This document shows, piece after piece, positions 6,657-27,284 of a stretch of 64,000 bases of DNA. The first letter of the stretch is position 1. The number at the start of each line of letters is the position of its first letter. Made by a program: the position numbers and the translations under genes. The notes beneath the pieces are model-generated. The model saw only the letters and a program-made list of their open reading frames with translations, had not been told where the DNA came from and did not search any database. The DNA comes from Nocardioides silvaticus (GTDB lineage: Bacteria; Actinomycetota; Actinomycetes; Propionibacteriales; Nocardioidaceae). The stretch covers positions 186,001 to 250,000 of the forward strand of contig NZ_QGDD01000001.1 in assembly GCF_003160695.1 (NCBI RefSeq). Direction: 5' to 3'.

Positions 6657-6678
6657 TGTCTGCTCTCCTGCTCTTCTC

Positions 6679-9234: not shown

Positions 9235-9656
9235 CAGCTGTCCCTGGCCAGCGCATCGGCGATGGTCCAGGCGTTCAGAACCACCGCCACGGCCGCCGCA
9301 CACAACAGCAACCGGCGCAGCCACGGCGCTAGGGCGCTGTCGCGGGCGAGCCCCTCGCCGCGGCGGGCCAAGTCGCGTCGGGTGAAGAAAGCCATGAGCA
9401 GGATTGACACGGTGCCACCGACGAGCCACCCCACCAGCGCGAGGTTGTGCGAGGCCGTCACCAGTGGGATGGCGATCCCGGCGGCGGCCGCGAAGAGGCC
9501 GCCCCAAAGCCAGACGAGCGGGGCGGCGGAAACCTCGAGGGCACTGCTGGAAACGTCGCGAACCTGGGTTTGCGGTCGGCTGCTGGCGCCGTAGAAGTCA
9601 GGCTCGTCGGCAGCGACCTCATACCGGCGCGGCGGGTCGTCCCAGGAATCCGACAT
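9231..9656 (-). CDS. Small membrane protein heading the tubulin-like/vWA operon
   Basis: 141 residues from ATG 9656, which follows GGGGA. The N-terminal 55 residues are polar. They are followed by helices near 57-75 and 80-100 and a C-terminal one near 118-134, with a basic loop between. The frame is open upstream to 10211, but that extension matches the decayed DUF1643 gene described separately, so I do not count it. The stop overlaps the vWA start as GTGA. No family recognised. Likely an accessory membrane component. Confidence 0.65.
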   Translation of the reverse strand: MSDSWDDPPRRYEVAADEPDFYGASSRPQTQVRDVSSSALEVSAAPLVWLWGGLFAAAAGIAIPLVTASHNLALVGWLVGGTVSILLMAFFTRRDLARRGEGLARDSALAPWLRRLLLCAAAVAVVLNAWTIADALARDSW

Positions 9657-10430: not shown

Positions 10431-13400
10431 TCAGGGCTCCAGATCGATGGACAGATCCCCGAGGTCAGCGGCACGGTCTCCGAGGTAGCGCAGCAGGTCG
10501 CTCTGCCGGGGCTGCCCGAGGACGAGTCGATAGGCGCCAACCGTGCGGAGCAGACGCCGTAGGGAGTGGGTTTCGCGACTGAGCGGGAGGCTGGGGACGT
10601 AGCGCTCGATGCGCGCGCTGCCGGCGAGCGGCGGCGTCCACGACGGGTACAGGTCATTGCTTCCCTCCGGACGGTCCGCGGCGGCCAGTTCGAACATCGT
10701 GGGCCACGGATCGCCGGACGCGGCGACCTCAGGCCGAGAGCTGTACCCCGCGGCGACGTTGCGGCGTACGGCGTGTCCCTGGTAGCGGTGCACCCGTCCC
10801 TCGCGCTGCTCGAGGTCGACGGGGTTGGCGGGCAGGTTCCAGTGCACGATGGCGTGGCTGTAGTAGTGGAAGTCGAGGCCCTCTTGGCCGACCGAGGTGG
10901 AAGCGAGCACGAACGGCCAGAAGGGCGAGTTGAACGCCGCCCGGACCTGTCCCTCACGCATCACGTTCTTGTCGTCTTCAGCGACCCCGCGGCCGAACCG
11001 GACCGCGAAGTGGGTGCGGGTGCGGTGACTCTCCATCGACACCGCGCCGTCGTCGGCGCGGATGTCGTGGAAGGTGTGGGTCGATGTGCGCAGCGACGCG
11101 GCCTCGTCGAACCGCTCAGAGATCTTGAACCACGTCTCTGAGCGTTCCCCGTCGGCGACCGCCTGCTCGAGCAAGTAGACGTACTCGTCGAGCACGCTCT
11201 GCAGGCAGCCATCGACGCAGTACGACAGGGCGTCCTGCCAGTACGGTCGGCGCTCCTGGCTAACGACGAGGCCCATCACCTCAGGCTTGTTGAAGTGGTT
11301 GCGCAGCGACCACGCCATGTTGGAGGCCGCGTCCTGGAGTGACTGATCTGACAGGTCCTCGGACGACCCCGACCGACCGAGCGCTCGGGCCGCGCAGACA
11401 CCGAACCCTCCGATCGCGAGGCGAGTCAGCACCTCCGACAGGTCGTCAGGGCGGCGCCCCAGGTCCTCGGCCTCTACGAGGGCGGCTTCTTCGACGTGTG
11501 CGGAGAACCTCGAGGGATCGTCGGACTCCTCGTAGTGGAAACCGTAGGAGAGGTCGTCCACCACGTGGACGTCTCGCAGCCGGTCGAGCAGAATGCCCGC
11601 GGCCCAGTACCACCGTTCGTCCGGGGCGGAACTGGGCTCCCCCTCCGGGATGCCTGCGAGCAGGGCCTCCACCCTCGTCCGTACAAGGCGTTGGAAAGCG
11701 TCCCGATCCAGCGGCAGCGCCTCTCCCATCTCGGCAGCCACCGACAACGGGTCGCCGGCCTCCGCGAGCGCCACCGACGGGTAGAGCAGTCCCACCACCG
11801 GCATGCCGCCGAGCCGTCCGTCCGCGGCGCGGTTGAAGCTGAGGAGTCCGGGGGGCCGCGTCGCGTCATACCTCGTGAACCCGGCGGCGCTGCTGGCCGC
11901 CGCCGCCTTGGCCGCGATACGCCGCTCGGCCTCGTAACTCACGATGCTGCCGATTGCCTTGGGGGCCACGGCCCAGGCCGAGAAGACCAACCGCTTGGTG
12001 AACTCTCGGAGCTCCTTGGCAGCGTAGGCGCCACCGAGCTCGTAGTAGGGCAGCGAGGGTGGGATCCAGACGAGCTGCCAGGCGCCCGAGTCGACCGTGT
12101 CGCCCACGAGCCCGCGCATCTTGGCGTTGCCGGGGTCCACCGCGAGGTAGTCACGCACATCGTCCCACCGCAGCCGGGCGCCACCGCCGGACAGCGCTGC
12201 AACCAGTGCGGGGTCGTGAGCGTCGTGGCGTTGCAGCTTCTGCTTGACCTGGTAGCTCTCCATCAGCTCCAGCACGTACGGCGCCGCCCGCCAGAACTCC
12301 AGCGGGTCTTGGGATTCGAGCACTCGCGAGACGCGGTGCAGACGCCGGTAGTCGCGGACGTCGTCGGGCTCGAGTCGGACGGACGGAAGAGTCCTCTCCA
12401 CGACCATCCCGTCACGGTGGGCGCTGGTGGCCAGCCGCTCGGTGCGCGACATGATTCGACGCAGCTCGGCTTGTGCGCGATCGCGAGCCGCCGAGGCGCC
12501 TTCCCGGTCGCCGGCGTAGAGACTGGCTCGCAGGGCCGCGAGATCGGTCTTCACTCGCGACGCGCGGTCGTCGCCGGCCAGGAAGCGGACGGTGTCCACG
12601 AAGTCGCGGTAGTGGTCGTCCCCTTCGGGCTCCTCGGGGAGGGTGTACATCTTGAACGGCGTGGCGCTGAGCAGTAGGAGCCGCGCGTCGCCGTGGTCGA
12701 AGAGCTCGCGCGCCAGGTCTGCGCCTTCGCCGTCGTCGGACATCAGGTCCTTGAACCGCTGGAACTCGTCGAGGATGACGAGGTCGGGCTCGAGCCGCTT
12801 GACCGCTGCCCGGGCCAGGGCGCGCCTGAGTCTGCCGATGATCCGGTAGCGGCGGGCGCTGACTCCTTCTGGTGCCTTGCGGCCGCCGAGTCCCTTGTAG
12901 GCCTCGACACCCTCTCGCAGTTCCTCGATCAGTGTCTGCCCTGCGGTGTTGCGCAGCGTTTGCACGGACTCGGCGAAGTCGCGCACGAGGTCGGCGGAGA
13001 GGTGGGAGCGGTTGAAGTCGTCGATTCGGCGCCGGAATCGTGCCTCGTCGACGCGCCCGCGGAAGAACCGCAGCCAGGGTCCCGGCCGAACCTCGTTGCT
13101 CCAGGTGGCCTTCAGCAGGTGGTAGAGAAGTACCCGCTCCTCGACGCGCCCGCCGCTGCCGCCGACGCTGAAGGAAGTTCCGGGGGTGAAGGAGACGAAG
13201 TTGAGCTTGCGGCCCTCGAGGTGGCGCAGCTCGGAGGCGAGCATGGTCAGCCGGTCGGCGTGGTGACGCTCGGCGATGCCTTCGCCGACCCTGAGCTTGG
13301 GGAGGTTCTGGTGGGCGATCTGGGTGTTGGAGCAGATGTAGACGACGTCGATGCGGTCGACGGTCTCCCACAGGTGGTCGATCGTCTTGGCGATGACCCC

Positions 13401-13571
13401 CCGAGCCACCAGGGTCTTGCCCAGGCCGACCTCGTCGGCCACCAGGAAACGCCGAGTGGGGTCGGTCGGGTGCCAGAACTGCTCGTGGACCCGGTCGACT
13501 GTGCGCCGCTGGAAGTCCTTGAGCATGGCCAGCTCGGCGTCGACGTCAGGGCGCGACGGGGTCGCGCTCAC
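10431..13571 (-). CDS. SNF2-like (SF2) DNA helicase/translocase
   Basis: 1046 residues from GTG 13571, which overlaps the stop of the PLD gene as GTGA. Motifs in order: Walker A DEVGLGKT (about residues 46-53), motif II LVILDEFQ, motif III LLLLSATP, and near the C-terminal third QEGLDF and EQREGRVHRYQGH, the motif V/VI arginine-finger region. This set is that of SNF2/HepA-type ATPases that move on double-stranded DNA. A long helical insertion separates the two RecA lobes. It is the last gene of a four-gene overlapping operon with a PLD-type protein, as in several phage-defence systems (DISARM also pairs SNF2 helicases with PLD proteins). The methylase and DUF1998 genes of DISARM are absent here. 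Confidence 0.85.
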   Translation of the reverse strand: MSATPSRPDVDAELAMLKDFQRRTVDRVHEQFWHPTDPTRRFLVADEVGLGKTLVARGVIAKTIDHLWETVDRIDVVYICSNTQIAHQNLPKLRVGEGIAERHHADRLTMLASELRHLEGRKLNFVSFTPGTSFSVGGSGGRVEERVLLYHLLKATWSNEVRPGPWLRFFRGRVDEARFRRRIDDFNRSHLSADLVRDFAESVQTLRNTAGQTLIEELREGVEAYKGLGGRKAPEGVSARRYRIIGRLRRALARAAVKRLEPDLVILDEFQRFKDLMSDDGEGADLARELFDHGDARLLLLSATPFKMYTLPEEPEGDDHYRDFVDTVRFLAGDDRASRVKTDLAALRASLYAGDREGASAARDRAQAELRRIMSRTERLATSAHRDGMVVERTLPSVRLEPDDVRDYRRLHRVSRVLESQDPLEFWRAAPYVLELMESYQVKQKLQRHDAHDPALVAALSGGGARLRWDDVRDYLAVDPGNAKMRGLVGDTVDSGAWQLVWIPPSLPYYELGGAYAAKELREFTKRLVFSAWAVAPKAIGSIVSYEAERRIAAKAAAASSAAGFTRYDATRPPGLLSFNRAADGRLGGMPVVGLLYPSVALAEAGDPLSVAAEMGEALPLDRDAFQRLVRTRVEALLAGIPEGEPSSAPDERWYWAAGILLDRLRDVHVVDDLSYGFHYEESDDPSRFSAHVEEAALVEAEDLGRRPDDLSEVLTRLAIGGFGVCAARALGRSGSSEDLSDQSLQDAASNMAWSLRNHFNKPEVMGLVVSQERRPYWQDALSYCVDGCLQSVLDEYVYLLEQAVADGERSETWFKISERFDEAASLRTSTHTFHDIRADDGAVSMESHRTRTHFAVRFGRGVAEDDKNVMREGQVRAAFNSPFWPFVLASTSVGQEGLDFHYYSHAIVHWNLPANPVDLEQREGRVHRYQGHAVRRNVAAGYSSRPEVAASGDPWPTMFELAAADRPEGSNDLYPSWTPPLAGSARIERYVPSLPLSRETHSLRRLLRTVGAYRLVLGQPRQSDLLRYLGDRAADLGDLSIDLEP

Positions 13572-15409
13572 GACGAGGCGCCTTCCCACACGACCCGCCA
13601 GATTGTCTGGAACTCCTCGTCTAGCTGGGGCAGCTGGCCCGTCTCGTCGCGGAGGTCCTCGAGGAGACGGTGGGCGCGACCGAGTGCCTCGTCGCCGCGG
13701 GCCGCGGCCCGGAGCAGCGGTTCGACGAGCACCAGGTCGTCGAACCCCCGGCCGAAGGCGCCGCCTGCTCCCGCGGCCTCCGGGTCGTCATCGGTCGCTG
13801 CCAGCCGGTCGAGCAAGGCTTCGGCGCCGAGGTCTCCGAGCAGGAGCATGAGGTAGCGCAACACGTCCTGCTGGCGTGCCAACAGCGCACGCAGGAGGCG
13901 GCGGTGGCGGTCGTCGGGCGCACCGGACACCTCGCACACGAGGACGCAGTCGCGGCGAACCTCAACACCGTTGGACGCGGCTTCGGTGACGACGACCAGG
14001 TAGGGCGCCAGCCCGTGGAGACTGACCGGACCCCAGGAGAGATCCCCGCCGACCGGCTGGGCCGGGGCGTTCGCGACGGCGGCGGGCTTGACGGTCGTCG
14101 TCGCGGCGAAGCCGTCCGGGTCGGGAGGTAAGGACAGGTCGAGCCGGACTGTGTAGGCGTTCTCGTCTTCGTCCTGCTCGACGAGCAGGCGGGGCCGCGC
14201 CGCTGCCAGGGCCACGTGCCACGCTTCGACGCGTCGCTCCAGGTCGTAGGTCGGGTCGGCGGTCGGCTCCTGCTCCTCGATCTCGTGAGGTTGGGTGAGG
14301 CGGAGCAGCCCGGAGCGGTCGTCTCCCAGGACACTGGCGACGCCGCAGGTGGCGGTGGGACCGCTGAGCACGACAGCCATCTCGACGTTGCCGCCGAACG
14401 CCGCTCCGGTGCAGTTGGCCGAACCCGTGAGCACGTGGGAGGTGCCCACACCGTCGTCCCAGACGAACACCTTGGCGTGCAGGCCCCGGGGCACTCCCCC
14501 GTGCTGTCCGGCCTCCGTCGGCCCACGAGGCGATTCCTCAAGCGACTCATCTGGCGAGGCCAGGTCGGCCATGGGTTGAAGGACGACGGTCTCGGCGTCC
14601 GCGCAGGCGCGGCGGCCGACCCGGTCGAAGGCATCGGGTCGCGACAGAATCACCCGACGGCCGCTCGTCCGGGGCAGCCGTCGCAATGCCGAGACCTCCA
14701 GGAACGGCGAGATGACCGCCCAGGCGGCACTTTCGTCGGGCAGCGGCCAGCCGAGGTCCGCACCGGCCCCCATCGGCACGACAGCCGCCGCCGTGAACGG
14801 CTCAGGCACCGAGAAGCGCACGCCGGGCAGCCCGGCACACAGGTCACGCAGGCCGTCCTCGCGGGCAGCTGCGAGCGGTCGAACGAGCGAGCCGAGCAGG
14901 TCGAGCGCCCAGGCGGCCACCGGTGCCGCGTCGAACGTGCGGGCTGAGGTGGGCTCTTCGTCGCAAACCAGCACGGTGTCCCACGAGCGATCACCGGTGA
15001 GGTTGCGGCTCAGGCACACGAAACGGTGCCTCCGGGTGCCCGACTCGTCGACGAACCGCAGGAGCCAGATTTTCGGGTGGAAGGTGTGCCCGCGCGGCGG
15101 CTCAACCTCGGCGACCATGCCTTCGGCGAAAGCAGCCAGCCGAGGGTAGGTCGGCGGCACGTGCACGCCACCGGCCTGGCAGAGCACGGTCGTGTGCTCG
15201 GCGTGGCGGCGCACCGACTCCAGCAGCGCGACCGGGGTTGCCGCGTCCAGGCCGCTGTCGGCATGGTCGTAGGCAGCCATGGCCAGCGGCGCGAGGAGCA
15301 CGGACTGGAGGTCCACGGTGTAGGTGGTCGCCATCGCCACGTCGACCCGGTGCCCCCCGGGCGGCCGGAGCGCGTCGGTGAGCAGGTGTCGTTCAGACGG
15401 GTCCAGCAT
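13568..15409 (-). CDS. Phospholipase-D-type protein with two HKD motifs (putative nuclease)
   Basis: 613 residues from ATG 15409, fused to the preceding stop as TGATG. A much longer upstream frame is a shadow of the DUF6361 gene. Two HxK motifs are visible: H111-P-K113 (FHPKIWLLRF, then LSRNLTGD) and H311-A-K313 (LHAKVFVWDD, then LTGSANCTGAAF). These form the paired half-sites of a PLD active site, acting through a phospho-histidine intermediate. Bacterial PLD proteins coded with SNF2 helicases are usually nucleases or nuclease-like subunits rather than lipases. The C-terminal 250 residues are acidic and unassigned. It probably acts in a complex with the helicase. Confidence 0.82.
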   Translation of the reverse strand: MLDPSERHLLTDALRPPGGHRVDVAMATTYTVDLQSVLLAPLAMAAYDHADSGLDAATPVALLESVRRHAEHTTVLCQAGGVHVPPTYPRLAAFAEGMVAEVEPPRGHTFHPKIWLLRFVDESGTRRHRFVCLSRNLTGDRSWDTVLVCDEEPTSARTFDAAPVAAWALDLLGSLVRPLAAAREDGLRDLCAGLPGVRFSVPEPFTAAAVVPMGAGADLGWPLPDESAAWAVISPFLEVSALRRLPRTSGRRVILSRPDAFDRVGRRACADAETVVLQPMADLASPDESLEESPRGPTEAGQHGGVPRGLHAKVFVWDDGVGTSHVLTGSANCTGAAFGGNVEMAVVLSGPTATCGVASVLGDDRSGLLRLTQPHEIEEQEPTADPTYDLERRVEAWHVALAAARPRLLVEQDEDENAYTVRLDLSLPPDPDGFAATTTVKPAAVANAPAQPVGGDLSWGPVSLHGLAPYLVVVTEAASNGVEVRRDCVLVCEVSGAPDDRHRRLLRALLARQQDVLRYLMLLLGDLGAEALLDRLAATDDDPEAAGAGGAFGRGFDDLVLVEPLLRAAARGDEALGRAHRLLEDLRDETGQLPQLDEEFQTIWRVVWEGASS

Positions 15410-16614
15410 CAGGCTGCTCCCTCGGTGTCCTCGGCGCTGGTCAGCCCGGTGTGGATGTCTGCGAGGAAGCTCGTCGCGATTCCCCAGCGGTAGCCGAGCC
15501 GACCGGTGCCAGCGCCCGGAGTCCAGGACTCGCGGGCCTGGGCGTCGAGGAGTCGGCTGCGGCGGCCCTTGAGGAAGATCTCTCGCTGCCTGACCAGCGC
15601 CCGTGCATGCGACGAGGTGTACCGGCCCGACTCGGCCAGTGCGAACCAGTCCTCCACGAACGACTGGGTGGAGGAGCGCAGGCGGGGGTTGAGCCCCCGA
15701 ACAAGGGACCAGAACCCGAAGCGGTCCCACCCCTCAAAGACCCGGTGCTCCTTGAGCTCGGCCTCCCACTCCTTCAACCGGGTGTCGTACTCCTCGACGA
15801 GGGCGTCGTCGGACACCAGCTGGGCCAGCATCAGGTTGTACAGCAACGGCGCGCCGTGCCACGCGTGGTGCAGGCGCCGGGAGTGGTCGACCTGCAGCTT
15901 CTGTGTGTCCGGGAGGCGCTCAAGGGCGGGCGAGGTCCAGATCCGCTCGCCCACGGCCTCGTGCGGCCGCGTGGCGAACCGGCTCAGCAGGCTGTCGCCG
16001 GGCAGTCGTGCGAAGACGCCTTGGAGGTACCTCGCCTCGTCAACATTGAGGTCGAAGGTCGTTGCGGACAGCAGTTCGTCGGGCGCGGTCGGCAGCTCGT
16101 CGTCCAGCCCTAGGTCGGGACCGAGCGCGTCAGCTGCATCTCCCGCGGTGACGTCGCTGCGGTGGGCTGCTCGCCCCGCCATCCGCCGTAGATGCCCTTC
16201 GATACCCAGGCTCCAACGTACGACGCCGTAGCGCTGCAGCGCCGGCCAATAGACCTGGCTCGGCATCGTCTTGAGCCGGTCCTGGGCCTGGCTACCGATG
16301 ACCCCTGTGGTCTCGTTGCCCGCCAGGAGGGAGCGGATCAGTCGTACCTCTGCCTGGCGCAGCTCATGCTTGGCCTGGTCCAGCGAGTGACCCCGGCGGC
16401 CAGCGTCGCGCAGCAACCAGGGCACGAAGAGCAAGTAACGAACGCGGGTGTGCAGCACCGACGTGCCCGGGAAGAAGTGGTTGGAGAAGGCGTCGCGCAC
16501 CGCGCCGATGCCCAGTTCGTCGACGCTCCCCTGGTCCTGGAACATCATGACGATCTCGTTCATGGCGGCGCGCTGGGCGTCGTCTTGGTCCATCCATCCG
16601 AACAGGGAGCTCAC
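15409..16614 (-). CDS. DUF6361-like protein
   Basis: 401 residues from GTG 16614, overlapping the previous stop as GTGA. The opening SSLFGWMDQDDAQRAAMNE, then FFPGTSVLHTRVRYLLFVPW, and the closing part with SLVRGLNPRLRSSTQSFVED resemble proteins annotated DUF6361. I make this family call from memory. No catalytic motif is evident and the protein is helical. In bacteria such genes are often found beside PLD and helicase genes, as here. A function in target recognition or as an adaptor is inference only. Confidence 0.65.
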   Translation of the reverse strand: MSSLFGWMDQDDAQRAAMNEIVMMFQDQGSVDELGIGAVRDAFSNHFFPGTSVLHTRVRYLLFVPWLLRDAGRRGHSLDQAKHELRQAEVRLIRSLLAGNETTGVIGSQAQDRLKTMPSQVYWPALQRYGVVRWSLGIEGHLRRMAGRAAHRSDVTAGDAADALGPDLGLDDELPTAPDELLSATTFDLNVDEARYLQGVFARLPGDSLLSRFATRPHEAVGERIWTSPALERLPDTQKLQVDHSRRLHHAWHGAPLLYNLMLAQLVSDDALVEEYDTRLKEWEAELKEHRVFEGWDRFGFWSLVRGLNPRLRSSTQSFVEDWFALAESGRYTSSHARALVRQREIFLKGRRSRLLDAQARESWTPGAGTGRLGYRWGIATSFLADIHTGLTSAEDTEGAA

Positions 16615-18297: not shown

Positions 18298-20916
18298 TCA
18301 GCCTTCGTAGACGATCGCGATGTCCGACTCGTAGTACTCCACCACGGACCGCCTCAGTTTGCGGATGCCCTCGCGCGAGTACTCGGAGTGCAGCGGGATC
18401 GTGCGCTTGCGGTTCCCGATGGCGGTGACCTGCTCAATGCGGTCGAAGTGGTCGCCGTACCTCTCGGCGTAGTCGGCGAGCGCGTGAAGCTTCATCCGGG
18501 CGTCGTCGAGGTGGTGCCCGTGGGGGTCGACGATAGAGGCCTTCACCTCGCCGTCGTCCTCGTGGAAGAACACGAAGTCAGGGTGCATCGAGCGCCAGTT
18601 GCCTGAATCGTCGCGGTAGGCGATCGTGAGCGAGTCGGTCGCCGGCCGCGGCGGGTTGCGATACCAGCCGAGCGCGCCGTCGCGCGACATCTCGGTGCGG
18701 ACCACGTCGACCTCCCACGGGTTGAGGCCGCCGAGTGGGTAGAGCCCGTTCGCGTCCGCCATCAGGTGGCCCTCGAGCAGCGGCGCGTCGGACACCTCGC
18801 CGGTAGCCTTGTCGACGACCTTGTAGTCCTCCATCCGCAGCCGAGGCTCGCCAAGCCAGCCTCGTTGCGGGTCGACTGCGAGCCCGCGGATCTTCTCGTA
18901 CTCCTCCTGGCGCTCGTCGCTGAGTTTGGCGATCTCCCGGCGGAACTCGTCGAACCAGCGCTCCGCGATCGAATTCGCCACGTTGTCGACACGCGCCCGC
19001 ACGTCGCGGGTCGAGGCGAGCGCTGCCGTCCGGACGAACGCGTCGCGGAGCTCGTCGTCGTCCTCGTCCTCGGGGCACAGGTGGTCCACGTACGCCGTCG
19101 CCAACGAGTGGCCGAGCGCCTTGGTGGCGAACCGGAAGCCGGTGCGGATCGCCCGGTCGTCGGCGCGGATGACGAAGTCGTTGTAGGTCAGTTTCGAGCC
19201 GCCAGTGCGACCGAGGATCTCCTTGACGTGGACATCCCAGATCTCCGCCACAGCCGCGTCGAGCGCGGCGGCGTGATCGGCCGCGAGCTTGTCGAGCACG
19301 GGGATCAACTCATCGTTGACCGCCTCGAGGGCGCGAGGTCGGATGCCGTCGTGGGAGAGCGCCTGGGCCAGAGCCGTCAGACGGATCACCGGTCGCGCGT
19401 CACGCTGCGGCATCGTCTGGGTGGGCAGGCGGTCCCACACGTCCCAGACCGACTGCGGGATTGCGGGGTTACGGGTGAGCTCGCACGGTGCGAGCAGGAC
19501 CTTGCGCTGGGACGAGCCGGGCATCTCCTCGATCTGGCCGGTCAGGTACTTCACGACGTTGCCGGCGGTGGTCCGGTCGAAGAACGGCAGGATGCAGTCG
19601 ACCGCGTTGAGCCGCTCGTCCCCGGGTACCCGGCGCGCGAGCGGCGAGCGCACCATGCGGCCGAGCAGTTGGGTGATGTGCGTGCTGTCCTTCGCCGGGC
19701 GGAACGACACCATCACCTCCGCGCGCGGGCAGTCCCACCCGGTGGAAATAGCGTCCTTCGCGACCAGGACGCGGACCTCGCGAGTGCCCTCGACGCGCTG
19801 CGGCGGAATCCAGTCGATCTCCCAGGGCCCGAACTTTTGCGGTTTGTGCTCACCGAGGACGTGCCGCACGTGGCGGGCGTCGATGTCTCCGAGGACCGAC
19901 GCGATCACGTCGAGCGCCTGCCCGATCTCGTCGCGCCACGTTGTCTCCCCCGCTTCGTCATCGGGGGTGTTGCGCACCTGCAAGATGAGCAGGGGTACGA
20001 CGACGTCAGACTCCTCCTGCTGGGTCGCATAGCCGGCCCACCGCTCGGTGGACGCCTTCAGGCGCTCGGCGGCGTGGCGCACGAACGTGAGGTCGAACTG
20101 GCCGGCCTCATCGGGGATCGTCAGCGCGATCGTGTCCTTGACGAGACCTGACGCCTGGACCAGACCCGGGTCCACGAGCACCCGCTGCAGGGCGCGCCGG
20201 TTCTTCGACGCGTCGGCGGTCTTCATCGCCTCGTCGAACCGCTCGATCGTGGCCGAGATCCCCCACACGATGGGGATCGGCTTGTAGCCGGCGTGACCGT
20301 TGATCAGCCGTCGTACGAGCGTAGGCTTGTCCTGCACCTTCGCGGGCGTGAAGCCCCGGTGGGCCTCGTCGAGGATCAGGTAGACCGTCAGGTCCTCGTC
20401 CTCGATCGTGTTGGAGATCGTCTCCCAGATGGTCGACGACTGCAGGTCGGGCGCGACGGTGAACGCGGCGCTCTGGTCGCTGTCGGTCTCGGCGACGTGG
20501 CCGCGCGTCAGGAGCGAGTTCTTGCCGAGCTTGCCGGTGTTGAGGAAGTAGACCTTGCCCGGTTCGAGCTTCTTGCGGGAGAACGGCGGCTCGATCACCA
20601 CGAGGTCGGCGACGTTGAGCTGCTCGGACGCCTGGATCAGCCGGTCCCGCGTTTGGAGGTTCAGTGCCGGATCGTCGGAGAACCAGATGACGACCGCGCC
20701 GGGGTCGGGCTCAAAGCCGTCGAGCAGGTCGCTGCTGCCGTAGAAGAGCGCTTCGATCGCGGCGGCCGCCATCACCGTCTTGCCGGCTCCGGTGGTCGCG
20801 GTCAGCGAGAGCGACGAGTTCTCGCCGTCGCGGTGGAACGCGACCCGGGCGCGCTCGAGGTTGTCGAGGACCTTTCCGACCGCGTCGCGCTGGTAGGGGT
20901 GGAGCTCGAACCTCAT
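18298..20916 (-). CDS. res: Res-type DEAH ATPase of a type III-like restriction system
   Basis: 872 residues, ATG 20916 overlapping the methylase stop as ATGA. Walker A is TTGAGKT (residues 41-47), motif II DEAH, and motif VI QLLGRMVRSPLARR, as in type III restriction Res subunits. The C-terminal region has HPDFVFF followed by SIVDPHGHHLDDA. This is where Res proteins carry a PD-(D/E)xK nuclease, but the expected (E/D)xK is replaced by D-P-H-G, so nuclease activity is doubtful. The gene symbol is by family only. The pairing with the methylase upstream is the standard mod-res order. Confidence 0.82.
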   Translation of the reverse strand: MRFELHPYQRDAVGKVLDNLERARVAFHRDGENSSLSLTATTGAGKTVMAAAAIEALFYGSSDLLDGFEPDPGAVVIWFSDDPALNLQTRDRLIQASEQLNVADLVVIEPPFSRKKLEPGKVYFLNTGKLGKNSLLTRGHVAETDSDQSAAFTVAPDLQSSTIWETISNTIEDEDLTVYLILDEAHRGFTPAKVQDKPTLVRRLINGHAGYKPIPIVWGISATIERFDEAMKTADASKNRRALQRVLVDPGLVQASGLVKDTIALTIPDEAGQFDLTFVRHAAERLKASTERWAGYATQQEESDVVVPLLILQVRNTPDDEAGETTWRDEIGQALDVIASVLGDIDARHVRHVLGEHKPQKFGPWEIDWIPPQRVEGTREVRVLVAKDAISTGWDCPRAEVMVSFRPAKDSTHITQLLGRMVRSPLARRVPGDERLNAVDCILPFFDRTTAGNVVKYLTGQIEEMPGSSQRKVLLAPCELTRNPAIPQSVWDVWDRLPTQTMPQRDARPVIRLTALAQALSHDGIRPRALEAVNDELIPVLDKLAADHAAALDAAVAEIWDVHVKEILGRTGGSKLTYNDFVIRADDRAIRTGFRFATKALGHSLATAYVDHLCPEDEDDDELRDAFVRTAALASTRDVRARVDNVANSIAERWFDEFRREIAKLSDERQEEYEKIRGLAVDPQRGWLGEPRLRMEDYKVVDKATGEVSDAPLLEGHLMADANGLYPLGGLNPWEVDVVRTEMSRDGALGWYRNPPRPATDSLTIAYRDDSGNWRSMHPDFVFFHEDDGEVKASIVDPHGHHLDDARMKLHALADYAERYGDHFDRIEQVTAIGNRKRTIPLHSEYSREGIRKLRRSVVEYYESDIAIVYEG

Positions 20917-23060
20917 CGCGTGCTCCGTCCCGCCTCAATCTCGAAGTTCCGCAGGTACGCCTCGTAGAGCCGCACGGCCTCGACGTGCTCAGGAAGGTCC
21001 CGGCACACCGACGTGAAGAGCCGGTCGTCGTCCGTGACCACGAACGCCATCCGGATCTCGGCGCCCTCGGCTTCCCGCGCGGCGATCGCCTTGAGGAACG
21101 GCTCGGTCTGGTCGAGGTCGGCGAGCACACCGTAGGTGTCCACGACGTCGAACCCCGCCGAGACGTCGTCGATCCGGCGACCCTGCGAGCCTGCCCGCAT
21201 CCAGAGCAGCGGCGCGACCCGGGCGAACTCACGGCTGCTTGACACCCGCAGAGGCGCCTCGTAAGTCAGTGTGAAGAACTCGACGTTCTCCTGGAGCCCT
21301 TCCTTCATGGGAAACTCGCCATTGAACTTGTAGTCCAGCTTGACTGGTTCGCCATCCGGGGTCTTGCCGGTGATCGCTGCTTTGAGGCGAGGCTTCGTGA
21401 TCCATTCGCAGATCCCGAACCGATCCCACTCCTCGTCCCCAGGCCTGAGACCTCTTGCTCTCAGAGCTCTCTGCTCCTCGAATGAGACCTCGTTGTTTGT
21501 CACGACAATGGAACGGCGTCGTCCGCCGTCCAGCTTGTTCAGTCTCATCACGGCATGGCCCGTCGTGCCCGACCCGCCGAAGAAGTCGACCACGACGGCC
21601 TCCGGCTTATCCAGGACGAAGAATCGAATCGCATCCTCCACCGCGTAAAGAGACTTCGGGAAGGGAAACTTGCGTCCGCCCAGCAGACTGCTAACGAGCA
21701 TGCTTCCTTGTTTGCCAGCGTCATGGGAAAGCTTGTTCCAGACCGACTTGGGGATTCGGGATGACGAGGCACCGCCGACGCGCCGGTAGATGGCATAGCC
21801 GAACTGATCAGTTCCCTGCCTTTCAATGTCCCCGGCGAGGATGCGCGCGCGATCGCCCGTGCGGATGTACATGATCGCGAAGTTGCCGGCGGGATTCTTC
21901 TCGCCGACCTTGGCGAAGCCATCCCGTGCATACTCACGGAAGGTTGACGCAGAGAGCTGCCAGCGGCCTTCCGACCCATCACGCCGGATCGGCCAGATCG
22001 TCCTGAGACCCGGTCTATCTGGAACCGATGTCCGAGCATCTCCCAGAGGGAGCGCGTCGCCGACGTCCACAATACGTCGCGACGACTCCTCTACGAAGAT
22101 AGGATAAAAAAGGTTCTTGCTGTCCTCACGACGTGCGTCTGTGCCGCTTCTGATCATGCTGAACCAGACAGGTGCGTCGACAGCCTTCTCCGCCTCGATG
22201 AGCATGTCGTCGCCGGTGCGCTGGACCTCTGAGCCGCCGATTCGGACGACGAACAGATACTCCTCAACCCGCGAGAACGACCCTGGTCGCGCGGATCCTT
22301 GAGGGCTGATGACGCTCGTAACCATGGACGTGCTCGCCTCCGGGAAAACCTGCTCGAGGAGAAGCGCGAGCCGCGATTGCTCCCGCTCGTCGATGGTGAC
22401 GATCAGTACCGATTCCTCTGGATTGAGTAGATCCCGCGCCAACAGCAGTCGTCGCTCCATGAAAGCCAGCCACTTGGAGTGGCGGTACAGGTCGTCACTC
22501 TCGACGTAGTCATTGCTGTACTTCCAGTCTCTTGCGCCCGTGTTGTAGGGCGGGTCGATGTAGATGCAGTCGACTCGGCCACGATGGGTGAAGAGCAGCG
22601 TCTGGAGCGCGTGGTAGTTCTCGGCGTTGATCACGGCGTGGAACGGCTTGTCACCCCCGCACTCGACCTTGCCGGTGGAGACGAGGCCCGGGTAGATCGG
22701 GTCGCGGAACTCGGCGACGACGACCAGCTCGGTGAGCGGTCGCTCCTGCGTCTCCGCGGGTTGGACGGCGGTGTCTTCGACGGTCGCGATTCCGGCGCTC
22801 CGGTCGATTGCGACAACTCGCCACAGCCGCGAGTTCTCGGCGGTCGGGTTCTTGCCGCGCTCGGGAAGGACGTGGACCTTGTCGCCGCGGCGGATCGTCC
22901 GGCCAGGGAGCTCGACCGTCTCCGGTGTGTGGCGTTCGAAGTTGAGGCCGAAAGCGCGCCGGTCGACGAGCGCGTCGTACTCGGTACGGAGCTCCTTGGC
23001 GATCGCCGCGGTCTTCTCGTTCGCTTCGAGCTGGCGGAGCAGGTCGTTGAGCCGGGACAC
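20913..23060 (-). CDS. mod: Type III-like site-specific DNA methyltransferase (Mod)
   Basis: 715 residues from GTG 23060, which follows AGGAG at 7 nt. The longer frame from 23108 lacks such a site. The catalytic motif IV IYIDPPYNTG is at about residues 166-175 and the AdoMet-binding motif I DFFGGSGTTG at about 492-501. This IV-before-I order defines beta-class N6-adenine or N4-cytosine methyltransferases, which include type III Mod proteins. The roughly 300 residues between hold the target recognition domain. It is preceded by a helicase gene (4-nt gap) and followed by res (4-nt overlap). It probably marks host sites so that the associated nuclease machinery spares them. Confidence 0.87.
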   Translation of the reverse strand: MSRLNDLLRQLEANEKTAAIAKELRTEYDALVDRRAFGLNFERHTPETVELPGRTIRRGDKVHVLPERGKNPTAENSRLWRVVAIDRSAGIATVEDTAVQPAETQERPLTELVVVAEFRDPIYPGLVSTGKVECGGDKPFHAVINAENYHALQTLLFTHRGRVDCIYIDPPYNTGARDWKYSNDYVESDDLYRHSKWLAFMERRLLLARDLLNPEESVLIVTIDEREQSRLALLLEQVFPEASTSMVTSVISPQGSARPGSFSRVEEYLFVVRIGGSEVQRTGDDMLIEAEKAVDAPVWFSMIRSGTDARREDSKNLFYPIFVEESSRRIVDVGDALPLGDARTSVPDRPGLRTIWPIRRDGSEGRWQLSASTFREYARDGFAKVGEKNPAGNFAIMYIRTGDRARILAGDIERQGTDQFGYAIYRRVGGASSSRIPKSVWNKLSHDAGKQGSMLVSSLLGGRKFPFPKSLYAVEDAIRFFVLDKPEAVVVDFFGGSGTTGHAVMRLNKLDGGRRRSIVVTNNEVSFEEQRALRARGLRPGDEEWDRFGICEWITKPRLKAAITGKTPDGEPVKLDYKFNGEFPMKEGLQENVEFFTLTYEAPLRVSSSREFARVAPLLWMRAGSQGRRIDDVSAGFDVVDTYGVLADLDQTEPFLKAIAAREAEGAEIRMAFVVTDDDRLFTSVCRDLPEHVEAVRLYEAYLRNFEIEAGRSTR

Positions 23061-23064
23061 GTGG

Positions 23065-24579
23065 TTACTCCTGGACTGCGTTGTCGGGGATGTAGGTGAT
23101 GGTGGCACGGGCGAACGTGCCGAGGATGCGTTCGTGGGTCTGTCGCGGCAGCTGGCGGTTGCCGGGCTCGCCGTATGGGTTGCCCGGGCGCGCCGGGGCC
23201 TCGCCGAGCAGGGTGTCGAGGCCGGGGCGGCTGACCATCAGCAGTCCGTGGGTGGCGCGGGTGCAGGTGACGGCGAGCCGGCCGAACGCGGAGTTGAAGT
23301 CGTTGAGCTCGCCGGCTCCGGTCAAGGGGTGGATGGCGATCGTGATGCCGTTCGTCTGGCCCTGCCAGGAGTCGACGGTCGAGGCGACGATGTCCTTGTC
23401 GGTCAGCTCGTGTTTCTCCCGAAGGCGATCGACGGCGTCCGCGGCGTCGTCGACCGCCTGGTTGCGAGTGGCGAGGATCGCGACGAGCGGGTCGCCGGTG
23501 TGAGTTCTGGGCTCCCAACACTCGCGTTCGCCGGTCGGGTTCGCCTCTTGGTCGTAGTTGGCCCGCTCGAGGGCGAAGCCAGCCGCGAACAGTTCGTCCA
23601 AGAGCGATTCGACGTACTCGACGAGCGGTAGGTCGATGTCGGCGGCCTCGGCGGGCGGCAGGCCGTCGACCTCGAGGAGGGTGGGCACGCCGCTGCCGAC
23701 CGTCGTCCAGATCTCGCCAGCGACGCCGTCGGCGCCGGTGACGAGCTTCCGGTCGTCCGGGCCGGCGACGCAGTCGAGCTGACTCCACTCGGGGTAGAAC
23801 GCCCGCCATAGCGCCAGCGCCCCGACCGGGGGGCGCCATACGGCAGGGAGCTCCCGCTCCCAGGTGCGGTCCGCGTCTTTACCGTCGGTGTAGTCGGTCG
23901 GCCAGGCGCGGTATGGGTTGTGGCCGGGGTCCCCGCGCCAGGGGTTGGTGCCCACCTCCAGCGGTGGAAGCTGCCCGACGTCGCCGACGCCGACCCACAG
24001 CGGGGCGGCCTTGTTGACCCGGTCGAACAGGTAGTGCGGCAGCTGCCACGCTTCGTCGACGAACAGCACGTCGTAGGGCGTGTCGCCGTTGCGGCCTGGG
24101 CCGAGTGCGTCCTTCTGGCGGCGCAACTCGCTCGGGGCGCCGAGCTTGTGGCTGGTCGCGATGACGACCTTGGCGTCTGTCGGGATCTCGGATGTCTTCT
24201 CCGCGATGGTCACGTGCTTGACGACGTCGTCGGGCAGATCGTTGACGGTCCCCTTTTTGACGAAGATGCAGACGTTGTCCTTGCCCAGGGACTTGGCGAT
24301 GTCGACAGCGAGCGGATGGATCTGTTTATTGGTGAAAGCGATGATCGCGACACGCGCGCAGCGTGCGTGGGCGACCGCGTCGTAAACCAGCCGTTTGAGG
24401 GCGAACGACTTGCCGGCGCCCGCGGCCGCCTTCAGCAGGATGCGCTGGTGGTCGCTCGTTCCAGCGAGCGCCGCCTGGAGGGCGGCTGACGCCTCGAGGG
24501 CGACAGCGGTGTTGCCGGCCGCTGCGACGGCGTGGTGCAGCCCAGTCGCGGTCTCGGCGGGCGAGGTGAAGGTGACCAT
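23065..24579 (-). CDS. SF1 DNA helicase (UvrD/Upf1-like)
   Basis: 504 residues from ATG 24579, joined to the previous stop as TGATG. A very long upstream frame is a shadow. Motifs: Walker A AAAGAGKS (51-58), Walker B VLFVDEAWQLP, motif III VGDVGQLPP, motif V VDSWQGQTN and motif VI AVTCTRATHGLLMVSR. This is a compact superfamily 1 core with few insertions, close to the helicase half of AddA, Dna2 or Upf1. The gene upstream codes for a Cas4-like iron-sulfur nuclease, so the two together resemble Dna2 split into separate chains. Likely role: unwinding or resecting foreign DNA within the modification operon. Confidence 0.83.
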   Translation of the reverse strand: MVTFTSPAETATGLHHAVAAAGNTAVALEASAALQAALAGTSDHQRILLKAAAGAGKSFALKRLVYDAVAHARCARVAIIAFTNKQIHPLAVDIAKSLGKDNVCIFVKKGTVNDLPDDVVKHVTIAEKTSEIPTDAKVVIATSHKLGAPSELRRQKDALGPGRNGDTPYDVLFVDEAWQLPHYLFDRVNKAAPLWVGVGDVGQLPPLEVGTNPWRGDPGHNPYRAWPTDYTDGKDADRTWERELPAVWRPPVGALALWRAFYPEWSQLDCVAGPDDRKLVTGADGVAGEIWTTVGSGVPTLLEVDGLPPAEAADIDLPLVEYVESLLDELFAAGFALERANYDQEANPTGERECWEPRTHTGDPLVAILATRNQAVDDAADAVDRLREKHELTDKDIVASTVDSWQGQTNGITIAIHPLTGAGELNDFNSAFGRLAVTCTRATHGLLMVSRPGLDTLLGEAPARPGNPYGEPGNRQLPRQTHERILGTFARATITYIPDNAVQE

Positions 24580-27284
24580 CAGTCGACGTCGTCCAGGGTG
24601 GCGTCGTCGGGTGCCGCGACGGGCTCGTCGGCGTACGGGTCCCCCTGCGGGGCGTCTGCGGCGGTGCTTTCGAACGCGTCGTCGTTGCGCACCGGCGGCC
24701 AAGTCTCTGGGTTGAGAAGGCCGGCGGCGCGGCGCTCGGCGAGCGTGTCGGACCATTCGGCCTCGTTGACCTCGTGCGGCTTGCAGCAGTAGTTGTGGGC
24801 GTCCGGGTCGTCGGCGTAGCCGGCGGTGACGCAGTCGGGCTTGGGTGCGGCGTTGCCGTCGACCGCGGGCCGTTTCACGTTCAGGTTCTTGCCGTACGGC
24901 GTGCCGGCGAACCAGTCGCTGTCGGCGACGACGACTCGGTCTCCGGCGGTGAGGGCAGGCGAGATCTTGGGAGTCCAGAGAAGGTGCCCGCGCGGCGCGT
25001 CTTCGTCGACGCCGTCCTTGCTGAGCGGGCCGATCGCCATTCCCTGGAACTGGAACGACGTGCCCTGGACCTTCAGGCCGACGTCGGGGTGTTCCACGCA
25101 CGGGTCGTCGTTGACGTGGAGCAGGACCACCGACGACCCGGCGACGATGCGGCGCGAGTGGACGTCCAGGACGAGGGGGTCGACGGAGACGACGTCGGCG
25201 AAGGCGACCATCCGCTGACCTGCGTCGGTGGCGAGGTCCTGGGCGGTCTGCGGGTTGGCCAGGGCGAGAAGCTGGTCGCGGCACTTCTGGTCGTCCTGAA
25301 TGGGTTCGACGAGCGCGTTGCGCCACCAGCGGTAGGTGCGCCCGAACCGGACGAGGTCGGAGGCGTGGAGCCGTAGTCGACGCTGCCAGACCGTCTGCGC
25401 GTCGGACTCGATCGTGCGGTGCACGACCCGCAGCCGGGACGGCTGGTCGCCGTCGAGAATCTCGATCGCCTTGGTCAGGACGTCGGATTTGTAGGCCAGC
25501 TCGGCGCGAACGAGTCGGTCGTACTCGGCGACGTTGCGGCGTTCTTCGGGCCCGGAGATCGTGGCGTGGATGGCGTTGGACTGGATGTTCGTCAGCCGCG
25601 CGCCGGGGGTGTGCGCGAGGTTCTCGACGTCGTCGGCGAGGTTGCGGTGGTCGACGGCGCTGCCCTCGAGGAACCACGCGACGACGTAGTCCAGACGCAG
25701 CGCGCTCACCGCTGGACCGCCGACGACGTGGTGACGGTTCAGCACCTCCTGAGCGTTGACGATCGGGGAGCGCAGGGTCATCGCCCGGGCTCGGTCGTCC
25801 TCCAGGAGAAACGCGACCGCCGTCCGGTCGTCCTCGCTCAGCCGCAGCGGCACCTGCGCCGGTTCGCCGTCGAAGGTCAGTTGCGGGCGACCCATCAGCT
25901 TGTCCTGCGCCCAGCGGAGGCGACTCAGCTCGAGGCCGGCCAGGTTGTCGGCGATCGACACGAGGACGTCGGCGGTCATCTTGTCCGGCACCACGAGGTG
26001 GACCGGCTCCGGGCTGTCGGGGTTCGCCACCCGTCGATCCTTGATCGCCTTCGTGAGCGCGGCTCCGATCGCGCGGACGACGGCGCGGCGTGTCTGGGGC
26101 GACTGCGGCTCGGGGAAGACGTGCTGCTGCCACTTCCCCGGTCCTTCGGAGGTGACGACCTGGATCGCGATCCCGTGCACGCCGAGTGCCGCAGCGTCGG
26201 CCTTGGCGAGCACCAGGTTGACGGTGCCGGGCAGACCGATCGGGTCCACGCGGCGCTGCTTGGTCTGCTGCGGCAGACCGTCCTTTGTGGCGACGACCTG
26301 CGCGACGACCGACGGCCGGGCGGGTCCGACCGCGCCGGTGCCGTCGACGATGCCGGCAACGTGCGGGCGGACCTCCCTGGCGATGCCGATCTCGACGAGC
26401 AGGTCGGTCGGGTTGGTGGACTTCCGAAGCTCGGCGCGGCAGAAGGCGAACAGCGAACAAGACGGGCAGGAGGCGGGGTCGTAGGTCGCGATGAGGTGTT
26501 CGACGAACAGGTCGACCGCGGAGGGGTCGAACGTCGTTCCGTTCGCCTCGGCTCGGCGTTCGGCGATCCGCATCGCGACTTCGCGCCGGTGGTCGGCCAG
26601 GTCCTCGACGAGGGCCTCGGGTTGGAGGAACGCGTTGCGCGGCACGGCGAGTGCGCCGTACTGGTGGACGCGCATTCCTGCGGGCAGCTTGGACCAGACA
26701 GCGGCGGACTCCGCGCCGACGGCGACCTGGAGGAAGCCCTTCAGCAGCCGGGAGTCCTCGACGCGTGAGCGGTGGCGCTCGTAGTCCTTCGCGTCGCCGA
26801 CCACCAGCCACGAGCCGGTCCGGTCAACGTTCGGCGCCACGACAGCGAAGTCCGGCTTCACGTCGGTTGCACTGGTGTCCTCGAAGCCGACGAACGGAAC
26901 GGCCAGCTGGTGGATGAGGGTGGCGGCGCCATCAGCGGATGCCCGCTGGTGGGCTTCAGTGAGCAGATCAGCGGTCCGGTCCTTGTTGACCTTCGCATCC
27001 GCGATGACGACCTCGGTCGGCCGGTTCAGTCCGATCGCGCCGACAGTCGTCGTGACAGTCTGACTGGCGAACGCCTCGTTCCTGACGAGGCGCTCGAACG
27101 TCATAGCCCGCATCCAGCGAGCATCCGGGATGCGCCCGGACGTGTCCGGGTGGCCGAGCTTCTCGGCAAGGGTTCTGCGGGCTACCCCGGTGACCAGCGG
27201 ATCGGTGCCGCGAAACCGCGCACACGCCGCATGCGCTGACGCTGCGACCGCGCTCGAACCTCCTCCGATGACCTTCGTCGTCAC
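24579..27284 (-). CDS. Cas4/RecB-like iron-sulfur nuclease, large
   Basis: About 901 residues from GTG 27284; an in-frame GTG at 27305 is the alternative. Near the N-terminus are C21, then PD at 144-145 (VKPDFAVV) and D164-A-K166 (WLVVGDAKDY), a PD-(D/E)xK nuclease signature, followed by C273-x2-C276-x5-C282. One distant Cys plus CxxCx5C is the 4Fe-4S layout of Cas4, AddB and Dna2 nucleases. The remaining 600 residues are unassigned; one stretch may be a second, degenerate domain. A Cys pair (YCCKPH) lies near the C-terminus. It heads the operon with SF1 helicase, methylase and Res. Nuclease class is a firm motif call; the fuller role is inference. Confidence 0.75.
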   Translation of the reverse strand: MTTKVIGGGSSAVAASAHAACARFRGTDPLVTGVARRTLAEKLGHPDTSGRIPDARWMRAMTFERLVRNEAFASQTVTTTVGAIGLNRPTEVVIADAKVNKDRTADLLTEAHQRASADGAATLIHQLAVPFVGFEDTSATDVKPDFAVVAPNVDRTGSWLVVGDAKDYERHRSRVEDSRLLKGFLQVAVGAESAAVWSKLPAGMRVHQYGALAVPRNAFLQPEALVEDLADHRREVAMRIAERRAEANGTTFDPSAVDLFVEHLIATYDPASCPSCSLFAFCRAELRKSTNPTDLLVEIGIAREVRPHVAGIVDGTGAVGPARPSVVAQVVATKDGLPQQTKQRRVDPIGLPGTVNLVLAKADAAALGVHGIAIQVVTSEGPGKWQQHVFPEPQSPQTRRAVVRAIGAALTKAIKDRRVANPDSPEPVHLVVPDKMTADVLVSIADNLAGLELSRLRWAQDKLMGRPQLTFDGEPAQVPLRLSEDDRTAVAFLLEDDRARAMTLRSPIVNAQEVLNRHHVVGGPAVSALRLDYVVAWFLEGSAVDHRNLADDVENLAHTPGARLTNIQSNAIHATISGPEERRNVAEYDRLVRAELAYKSDVLTKAIEILDGDQPSRLRVVHRTIESDAQTVWQRRLRLHASDLVRFGRTYRWWRNALVEPIQDDQKCRDQLLALANPQTAQDLATDAGQRMVAFADVVSVDPLVLDVHSRRIVAGSSVVLLHVNDDPCVEHPDVGLKVQGTSFQFQGMAIGPLSKDGVDEDAPRGHLLWTPKISPALTAGDRVVVADSDWFAGTPYGKNLNVKRPAVDGNAAPKPDCVTAGYADDPDAHNYCCKPHEVNEAEWSDTLAERRAAGLLNPETWPPVRNDDAFESTAADAPQGDPYADEPVAAPDDATLDDVD

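What the first reader, a model, noticed from the sequence alone, without database searches (positions are those of the whole stretch)
18298..27284. Four-gene operon: Cas4-like nuclease, SF1 helicase, type III-like methylase and Res ATPase
Sequence shows four same-strand genes joined by 1-4 nt overlaps or a 4-nt gap. The first two carry the features of a Dna2-like enzyme split in two: an Fe-S Cys set (C21, C273, C276, C282) around a PD-(D/E)xK core, and a compact SF1 helicase. The last two are a mod-res pair. I know of type III systems with mod and res only; adding a nuclease-helicase pair upstream is unusual. Inference: a modification-guarded system whose DNA degradation is done by the Dna2-like pair.
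Basis: partly seen in the sequence, partly recalled or inferred. Interest (0 to 1): 0.82.

Follow-up and report, generated by a model that had tools for sequence, protein, structure and literature searches.

The report
Portable DNA-degrading pair beside restriction systems
Two neighbouring bacterial genes for a likely DNA-cutting enzyme and a DNA-unwinding motor form a rare, exchangeable unit that here sits in front of a restriction-modification system, and in relatives beside a different kind of restriction system or with none nearby, so it may be a plug-in that helps destroy invading DNA.

Summary
Four tightly packed minus-strand genes: NUC (901 aa), HEL (504 aa), MOD, RES. HEL is an SF1 helicase with invariant motifs. 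MOD-RES is type III-like. Of 56 NUC homologues in public genomes, 52 have a full HEL frame directly behind (the other four are cut or fragmentary), but only 14 have this mod-res pair. Fourteen have a Type ISP restriction enzyme directly adjacent, 2 another res-mod pair, 26 none of these (17 of them without any sign of one). NUC-HEL is thus a two-gene module that has changed restriction partners repeatedly (10 changes on the tree once doubtful rows are left out). Best reading: a split Dna2/AdnAB-like nuclease-helicase that destroys DNA opened by translocating restriction enzymes, and that can also act alone. UvrD-Cas4 fusions beside type III mod-res (Hudaiberdiev 2017) are the precedent. No activity has been shown.

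The parts
24579..27284 (-). NUC (901 aa): residues ~1-300 Cas4-like Fe-S-type PD-(D/E)xK nuclease; ~352-626 DEDD/DnaQ-fold exonuclease-like domain; C-terminal beta-rich part and conserved Cys/His group
   Evidence: AlphaFold2 pLDDT 89.9, pTM 0.90; VIA-align Z 10.4 to Cas4 (7mi5), 9.7 to RNase T (3ngy), 9.6 to T7 DNA polymerase (6p7e); invariant C21, D145, K166, C273, C276, C282; no Pfam, PADLOC or NCBIfam hit at E 0.01
23065..24579 (-). HEL (504 aa): SF1 helicase, weakly closest to Dna2/UPF1 type
   Evidence: Pfam AAA_19 1.4e-6, AAA_12 0.0028; profile hit to Dna2 5eax E 0.006; invariant motifs; full frame directly behind NUC in 52 of 56 loci
20913..23060 (-). MOD: type III-like beta-class DNA methyltransferase (the open frame extends upstream to 23108)
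   Evidence: PADLOC MTase_III PDLC03645 810 bits; PF01555 2.7e-18; DPPY and FxGSG present
18298..20916 (-). RES (872 aa): type III-like SF2 translocase with a C-terminal PD...DxH motif
   Evidence: ResIII 5.7e-10; PADLOC REase_III only 29.6 bits; His in place of the expected Lys in 22 of 22 rows; model pLDDT 68.7 overall
10431..16614 (-). Neighbour, not part of the module: ZacA-ZacB-ZacC defence cassette (Azaca; system name recalled)
   Evidence: PADLOC ZacA 392, ZacB 542, ZacC 1152 bits
16611..18239 (-). Neighbour: DUF726 alpha/beta hydrolase between RES and ZacA
   Evidence: PF05277 3.7e-27; relatives near NUC-HEL in L031 and L041
27496..28800 (-). Neighbour: 434-aa gene upstream of NUC, not conserved with it
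   Evidence: no Pfam, PADLOC or NCBIfam hit; no tblastn match in the homologous loci searched

Best explanation
NUC and HEL make one two-protein enzyme: a Dna2/AdnAB-like nuclease-helicase split over two genes. HEL, an SF1 motor, unwinds DNA from an end or gap, and the Cas4-like domain of NUC cuts the single strand; the second, DEDD-fold domain of NUC probably guides the strand. The pair is a portable antiviral module. In this operon the type III-like MOD-RES enzyme marks host DNA and cuts foreign DNA at unmarked sites, and NUC-HEL then degrades the cut DNA. In relatives a Type ISP enzyme plays the cutter's part, and elsewhere the pair acts alone. Shown: gene order, predicted folds, conserved motifs, repeated partner change. 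Inferred: complex formation, activity, polarity, cooperation with the restriction enzyme, antiviral role.
For: Linkage: full HEL frame directly behind NUC in 52 of 56 loci, with spacing of -17 to +10 nt in 47 of those 52, and HEL in 6 of 6 NUC-bearing class genomes, own included. Fold: Cas4 Z 10.4, AdnA 8.0, EXO5 7.9, Dna2 6.7. Active-site residues invariant with and without a partner. Restriction gene directly adjacent in 30 of 56: mod-res 14, other res-mod 2, Type ISP 14 (Pfam Type_ISP_C on the three representatives tested). Type ISP sits in three arrangements: divergent in 12, downstream in L029, upstream on the same strand in L067. Two further loci keep remnants: MOD in L042, the other RES in L058 (62% over 133 residues). 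Partner labels need 10 changes on the tree with doubtful rows left out (shuffled mean 26.5). Rare and patchy: 6 of 393 class genomes, 2 plasmid records. Type III and Type ISP are discussed together as sliding or translocating enzymes in PMC12707154 (passages). UvrD-Cas4 fusions are most commonly beside type III mod-res (PMC5704561, section 8).
Against: 26 of 56 loci have no such gene adjacent, and 19 of those 26 genomes showed neither Type ISP nor RES anywhere, so the pair does not need these partners. The partner list is not exclusive: a GmrSD (type IV) gene lies close behind HEL in L042, L059 and L061. Type ISP partners have their own Mrr nuclease domain. The neighbourhood is a defence island, where adjacency can arise without cooperation; Zac genes lie within 10 kb in 8 of 56 loci. 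HEL's closeness to Dna2 rests on weak hits. Foldseek alone gave NUC no match below E 0.001. No phage or methylation data.
Confidence: 0.5

Rival explanations
1. NUC-HEL is an autonomous two-gene defence system (in the manner of Gabija or Hachiman, recalled) that senses phage DNA by itself; its place beside restriction systems only reflects clustering in defence islands.
For: 26 of 56 loci without an adjacent type III-like or Type ISP gene, some in ordinary context such as an aspartate-type tRNA synthetase, RNase J, a TPP enzyme or a molybdenum dehydrogenase; NUC motifs fully conserved there; GmrSD beside three.
Against: 30 of 56 have a type III-like or Type ISP gene directly adjacent, and two more keep remnants, more than loose island clustering would be expected to give; close operon spacing in most mod-res loci.
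Confidence: 0.27
2. NUC-HEL repairs self-inflicted damage: one-strand-methylating enzymes leave unmodified sites on daughter duplexes, and the pair processes accidental breaks for recombination.
For: Type III modifies one strand and needs two inverted unmodified sites (PMC12707154 passages); Dna2- and AdnA-like folds are repair folds.
Against: The window genome already has two adjacent long UvrD-type frames with nuclease-part matches, AdnAB-like by my reading; NUC is in only 6 of 393 class genomes; many loci have no such restriction partner.
Confidence: 0.13
3. RES has lost its own cleavage activity (His for Lys in PD-(D/E)xK) and NUC is the cleaving subunit of this type III enzyme.
For: DPH in place of (D/E)xK in 22 of 22 RES rows, one locus counted twice.
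Against: The same motif is in the 3 RES genes that have no NUC-HEL; a Lys in the following helix (K809) is invariant in 16 of 16 and may serve; NUC is likewise beside Type ISP enzymes that have an Mrr nuclease domain.
Confidence: 0.06

Closest known systems
UvrD-Cas4-like fusion proteins of type III mod-res loci (Hudaiberdiev et al. 2017, PMC5704561; section 8 read, passages elsewhere)
   Same: A helicase plus Cas4-like nuclease most commonly beside type III Mod and Res, also found alone or in other contexts, proposed to be an ancillary defence factor.
   Different: One fused chain with a UvrD motor and PF12705 nuclease. NUC-HEL is two genes, matches neither family well, and NUC has an extra DEDD-fold domain. 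Both kinds occur together in 9 of 14 mod-res loci. Type ISP pairing is not mentioned in the section read.
Dna2 nuclease-helicase
   Same: Fe-S PD-(D/E)xK nuclease (Z 6.7) with an SF1 motor (weak profile hit).
   Different: Split in two genes, extra domains, restriction-linked.
AdnAB / AddAB end-processing enzymes
   Same: RecB-family nuclease domain with Fe-S cysteines (AdnA Z 8.0; spacing rule recalled).
   Different: Motor not clearly UvrD-like (UvrD-helicase hit only 2.8e-4); patchy distribution; AdnAB-like frames lie elsewhere in the genome.
Type III restriction-modification (EcoP1/EcoP15 kind)
   Same: mod-res gene pair, beta-class methylase, ResIII helicase.
   Different: RES is far from PADLOC REase_III models (29.6 bits) and its profile matched no solved chain at E 0.001; DxH in the nuclease motif.
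TM0106/TIGR03491 RecB-like nuclease family
   Same: Recalled to combine a Cas4-like nuclease with an RNase H-like domain and an SF1 helicase.
   Different: No profile-profile match to NUC or HEL (low power); no TIGR03491 match in the window genome.

Membership tests
Cas4/RecB-type Fe-S PD-(D/E)xK nuclease (NUC) | PD-(D/E)xK fold of the Cas4/AddB branch | tested here: met
   Residues 3-299, Z 10.4, rmsd 4.5, 203 aligned, to Cas4 7mi5; Foldseek hit to MGME1 prob 1.00 but E 7e-3
Cas4/RecB-type Fe-S PD-(D/E)xK nuclease (NUC) | Catalytic D, (D/E)xK and four Fe-S cysteines in C-n-C-2-C-5-C spacing | tested here: met
   D145, K166, C21, C273, C276, C282 invariant in 51 of 51, D164 in at least 90%; spacing rule recalled; the cluster itself not shown
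DEDD/DnaQ exonuclease (NUC 352-626) | RNase H-like DEDD fold | tested here: met
   RNase T Z 9.7, T7 polymerase 9.6, ExoX 8.4, ExoI 8.2
DEDD/DnaQ exonuclease (NUC 352-626) | DxE...D...D catalytic acids | tested here: inconclusive
   K361-x-D363 where DxE is expected; D439 invariant; judged by eye on sequence, no superposition
Dna2-like nuclease-helicase | Nuclease and SF1B motor in one polypeptide | tested here: not met
   Two separate frames in the 52 of 56 loci where both are complete
Dna2-like nuclease-helicase | SF1B helicase with 5'-3' polarity | not testable with these tools
   Only a weak Dna2 profile hit
UvrD-Cas4-like fusion (pfam12705) | UvrD helicase fused to PDDEXK_1 | tested here: not met
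   HEL and NUC are separate; PF12705 not among the hits of 51 NUC sequences at E 1
Type III restriction-modification (MOD-RES) | Adjacent mod and res; beta-class methylase motifs; SF2 helicase in Res | tested here: met
Type III restriction-modification (MOD-RES) | C-terminal PD-(D/E)xK nuclease in Res | tested here: inconclusive
   DPH for (D/E)xK in 22 of 22 rows; C-terminal part of the model better predicted than the whole
Type III restriction-modification (MOD-RES) | One-strand methylation of an asymmetric site; cleavage needs two inverted sites | not testable with these tools
   Needs methylome and cleavage assays

The most novel reading that the evidence does not exclude
NUC-HEL is an exchangeable effector module for restriction enzymes: a split Cas4/DnaQ-fold nuclease plus SF1 helicase that has been plugged repeatedly onto two kinds of translocating restriction enzyme (type III-like and Type ISP), turning one restriction event into complete destruction of the invader, often together with a UvrD-Cas4 helicase-nuclease of opposite expected polarity, so that the two would work like the two motors of RecBCD.
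Probability: 0.35. Interest if true: 0.75.

Novelty: new variant of a known kind. Interest (0 to 1): 0.58.

Why it matters
How the fragments made by type III and Type ISP enzymes are disposed of is usually left to the host's general nucleases (recalled view). A dedicated, inherited nuclease-helicase that changes restriction partners would make restriction a two-step, modular process, and gives a testable reason why some restriction systems are stronger than others. NUC matches no Pfam, PADLOC (2023) or NCBIfam model, so defence finders built on these would miss it.

Tried and rejected
Rejected: the four genes as one obligate system. Rejected: NUC as replacement for a dead RES nuclease, since the DxH motif is also in RES genes without NUC-HEL. 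TM0106/TIGR03491 as parent family: hhalign of NUC and HEL against members from class genomes found nothing, but the alignments were shallow and even HEL against UvrD-Cas4 reached only 55% probability, so the test has little power; a first run used wrong reading frames for some rows and was repeated. No NUC relative in viral contigs or phage records. A phylum-wide sample gave 2 of 396 genomes, both already known. No shared third partner was seen for the pairs without type III/ISP genes: no DPPY-type motif in called genes of 200 aa or more in the 24 of 26 such loci scanned (a crude regular expression), and Pfam on 14 chosen neighbours of these loci showed mostly unrelated genes, two GmrSD genes and an SMC-like ATPase. 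The 434-aa upstream gene has no relative in the searched loci. Literature searches: ZacA/B/C, DUF6361, Azaca, Dna2-like with anti-phage, Type ISP accessory, Cas4-like with defence islands, TM0106, type III with Cas4-like, Type ISP with Actinobacteria. No title or abstract start in these listings named this pair; most listed papers were not opened and subscription journals are missing, so this does not show that it is unpublished. Folds absent from the VIA table are not taken as evidence.

Limits of counts: the 26 loci without an adjacent type III-like or Type ISP gene include L025, L045, L072 and L076 (contig ends or fragment). L025, L050 and L072 have RES pieces on other contigs of the genome, L042 has a MOD remnant, L058 a remnant of the other RES, and L042, L059 and L061 have a GmrSD gene close behind HEL. 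That leaves 17 without any such sign in the stretch held; several flanks are under 10 kb. Other restriction types were not searched for in these genomes. In one search HEL matches appear in 54 of 56, two of them partial (L025, L076). Tree: L020 and G375 were left out as near-duplicates; with all rows labelled it needs 13 changes, and without the doubtful rows L025, L042, L045, L050 and L072 it needs 10; well-supported branches alone force fewer (Type ISP 5, mod-res 2, none 5). It is a quick tree, with long branches at L057, L064 and L067. G072 was labelled Type ISP there and confirmed later at 47% identity.

Full report
Observation. The window is C1:186001-250000 of a 4.5 Mb, 26-contig genome. 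A genome of the same genus (G176) has the contig length and NUC place of Nocardioides ganghwensis L071, so the host is probably a Nocardioides (inference).

The proteins. NUC matches nothing in Pfam, PADLOC or NCBIfam at E 0.01; 51 homologues scanned one by one give only scattered hits, none in more than two members. Its AlphaFold2 model is good (pLDDT 89.9, pTM 0.90). Structure comparison shows two nuclease-type domains: residues 3-299 match Cas4 (Z 10.4), and also AdnA, human EXO5 and Dna2 (8.0, 7.9, 6.7); residues 352-626 match DEDD exonucleases such as RNase T and the T7 polymerase exonuclease (Z 9.7 and 9.6). Foldseek alone gave no match below E 0.001, so the Z-scores carry the assignment, and the tool warns that Z under 8 may be a common arrangement. 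The catalytic residues and four cysteines of the first domain are conserved in 51 sequences. In the second domain the DxE motif is not seen (K361-x-D363), so its activity is doubtful. A second Cys/His group (C818, H830, C833, C834, H837) is nearly invariant.

HEL has SF1 motifs, invariant in 27 of 27. Profile hits in the PDB are weak: a putative deoxyribonuclease, 9kwf (2e-5), and Dna2 (0.006). MOD is a type III-like methylase (810 bits) with intact motifs. RES has a ResIII helicase but is far from known REase_III models; its nuclease motif has DPH for (D/E)xK in 22 of 22 rows, three of them from loci without NUC-HEL.

Survey. A scan of genome contigs (84,980 species) with a NUC alignment found 56 loci; all titles that name a taxon are Actinomycetota. 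The scan uses two short motifs, so distant relatives are missed. A full HEL frame follows NUC in 52; in L025, L045 and L075 the contig ends, and in L076 the match is a fragment. Directly next to the pair are: this mod-res in 14; another res-mod pair in 2 (L046, L048); a Type ISP enzyme in 14; none of these in 26. Type ISP was identified by Pfam in L029, L038 and L067 and by similarity in the others. Twelve of the 14 are divergent from NUC, one lies 136 nt after HEL (L029) and one upstream on the same strand (L067). My rough estimate for chance adjacency is well under one locus (one Type ISP gene in about a fifth of genomes, about 4000 genes each); defence islands raise it by an unknown factor, and no island-matched control was run.

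The 26 others are mixed. L042 and L058 keep remnants of a MOD and of the other RES; L042, L059 and L061 have a GmrSD-type gene close behind HEL; L025 and L072 are probably broken four-gene loci and L050 has RES pieces elsewhere; L045 and L076 are cut or fragmentary. Seventeen show nothing of the kind. Of the 26 genomes, 5 have a Type ISP gene elsewhere and 3 have RES pieces; 19 have neither.

Converse test. In a class sample of 393 genomes, own included, NUC is in 6, HEL at E 1e-15 in the same 6 plus one distant copy at 29% identity in G348, and RES in 6, of which 3 have NUC. So NUC and HEL are bound to each other, while RES is a facultative partner.

Partner change. On a tree of 59 NUC sequences the partner labels need 13 changes as first labelled and 10 when five doubtful rows are left out (minimum 3; shuffled mean 26.5; none of 200 as low). 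Labels are thus clustered yet repeatedly changed: Type ISP loci L029 and L067 fall within the mod-res half, and loci without partner in both halves. The tree is a quick one, and L057, L064 and L067 have long branches.

A second helicase-nuclease. A UvrD-PDDEXK_1 fusion lies within reach of 9 of 14 mod-res loci, 2 of 2 res-mod loci, 1 of 14 Type ISP loci and 0 of the 26 others, some of which have short flanks. A relative (30% identity, UvrD plus PDDEXK_1 by Pfam) lies near mod-res in L091, which has no NUC-HEL in the stretch held. [quoted passage not shown] Pairing a 3'-5' (UvrD) and a 5'-3' (Dna2-like) motor would resemble RecBCD; this is inference.

Mechanism. Most likely the restriction enzyme opens foreign DNA and NUC-HEL degrades it from the ends. 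The lone pairs show that NUC-HEL must be able to act without such a partner. An autonomous defence system and a repair role are the main rivals.

Surroundings. Directly downstream lie a DUF726 hydrolase and ZacA-ZacB-ZacC, which I recall as the Azaca system; farther on a VWA gene and a tubulin-like gene. The region is a defence island; Zac genes are within 10 kb of NUC in 8 of 56 other loci.

Verdict. A real, conserved and unlabelled two-gene module; a new variant of the known theme of helicase-nuclease helpers near type III restriction genes, extended to Type ISP.

Noticed in passing
window 10431-16614 (-): Complete ZacA-ZacB-ZacC cassette (Azaca, name recalled) with strong PADLOC matches, in line with and just behind RES and a DUF726 gene.
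   Followed up: partly
window 536-9507 (-): A likely membrane protein (weak Wzy_C hit), a tubulin-like (PF13809) protein and a VWA-domain protein in a row; a distant tubulin-like relative (25%) lies near NUC-HEL in L052.
   Followed up: partly
L046:14220-19983 and L048:14212-19981: Another type III-like res-mod pair in the position of mod-res, with a UvrD-Cas4-type gene behind it.
   Followed up: partly
window 18298-20916, RES residues 778-810: PD-(D/E)xK Lys replaced by His (DPH) in all 22 aligned rows; K809 in the next helix is invariant in 16 of 16 and may have taken over.
   Followed up: partly
L042:14247-16756 and L058:9366-9755: Remnants of a MOD (L042, followed by a GmrSD gene) and of a RES (L058) beside intact NUC-HEL: restriction genes apparently lost while NUC-HEL stayed.
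   Followed up: partly
L059:6991-9393 and L061:14474-17137: GmrSD (type IV) genes convergent with and close behind HEL, each followed by an SMC-like gene.
   Followed up: partly
L094:6793-13045: Distant HEL relative (29%) in what looks like an operon with an SF2-type helicase and unknown genes in another genome: possibly a different system with a related motor.
   Followed up: no
window 24579-27284, NUC residues 818-837: Second nearly invariant Cys/His group (C818, H830, C833, C834, H837) that may bind a metal.
   Followed up: no
window 39404-41767 (-): 787-aa open frame with weak phage-integrase and HTH_17 matches; the island may be mobile.
   Followed up: no
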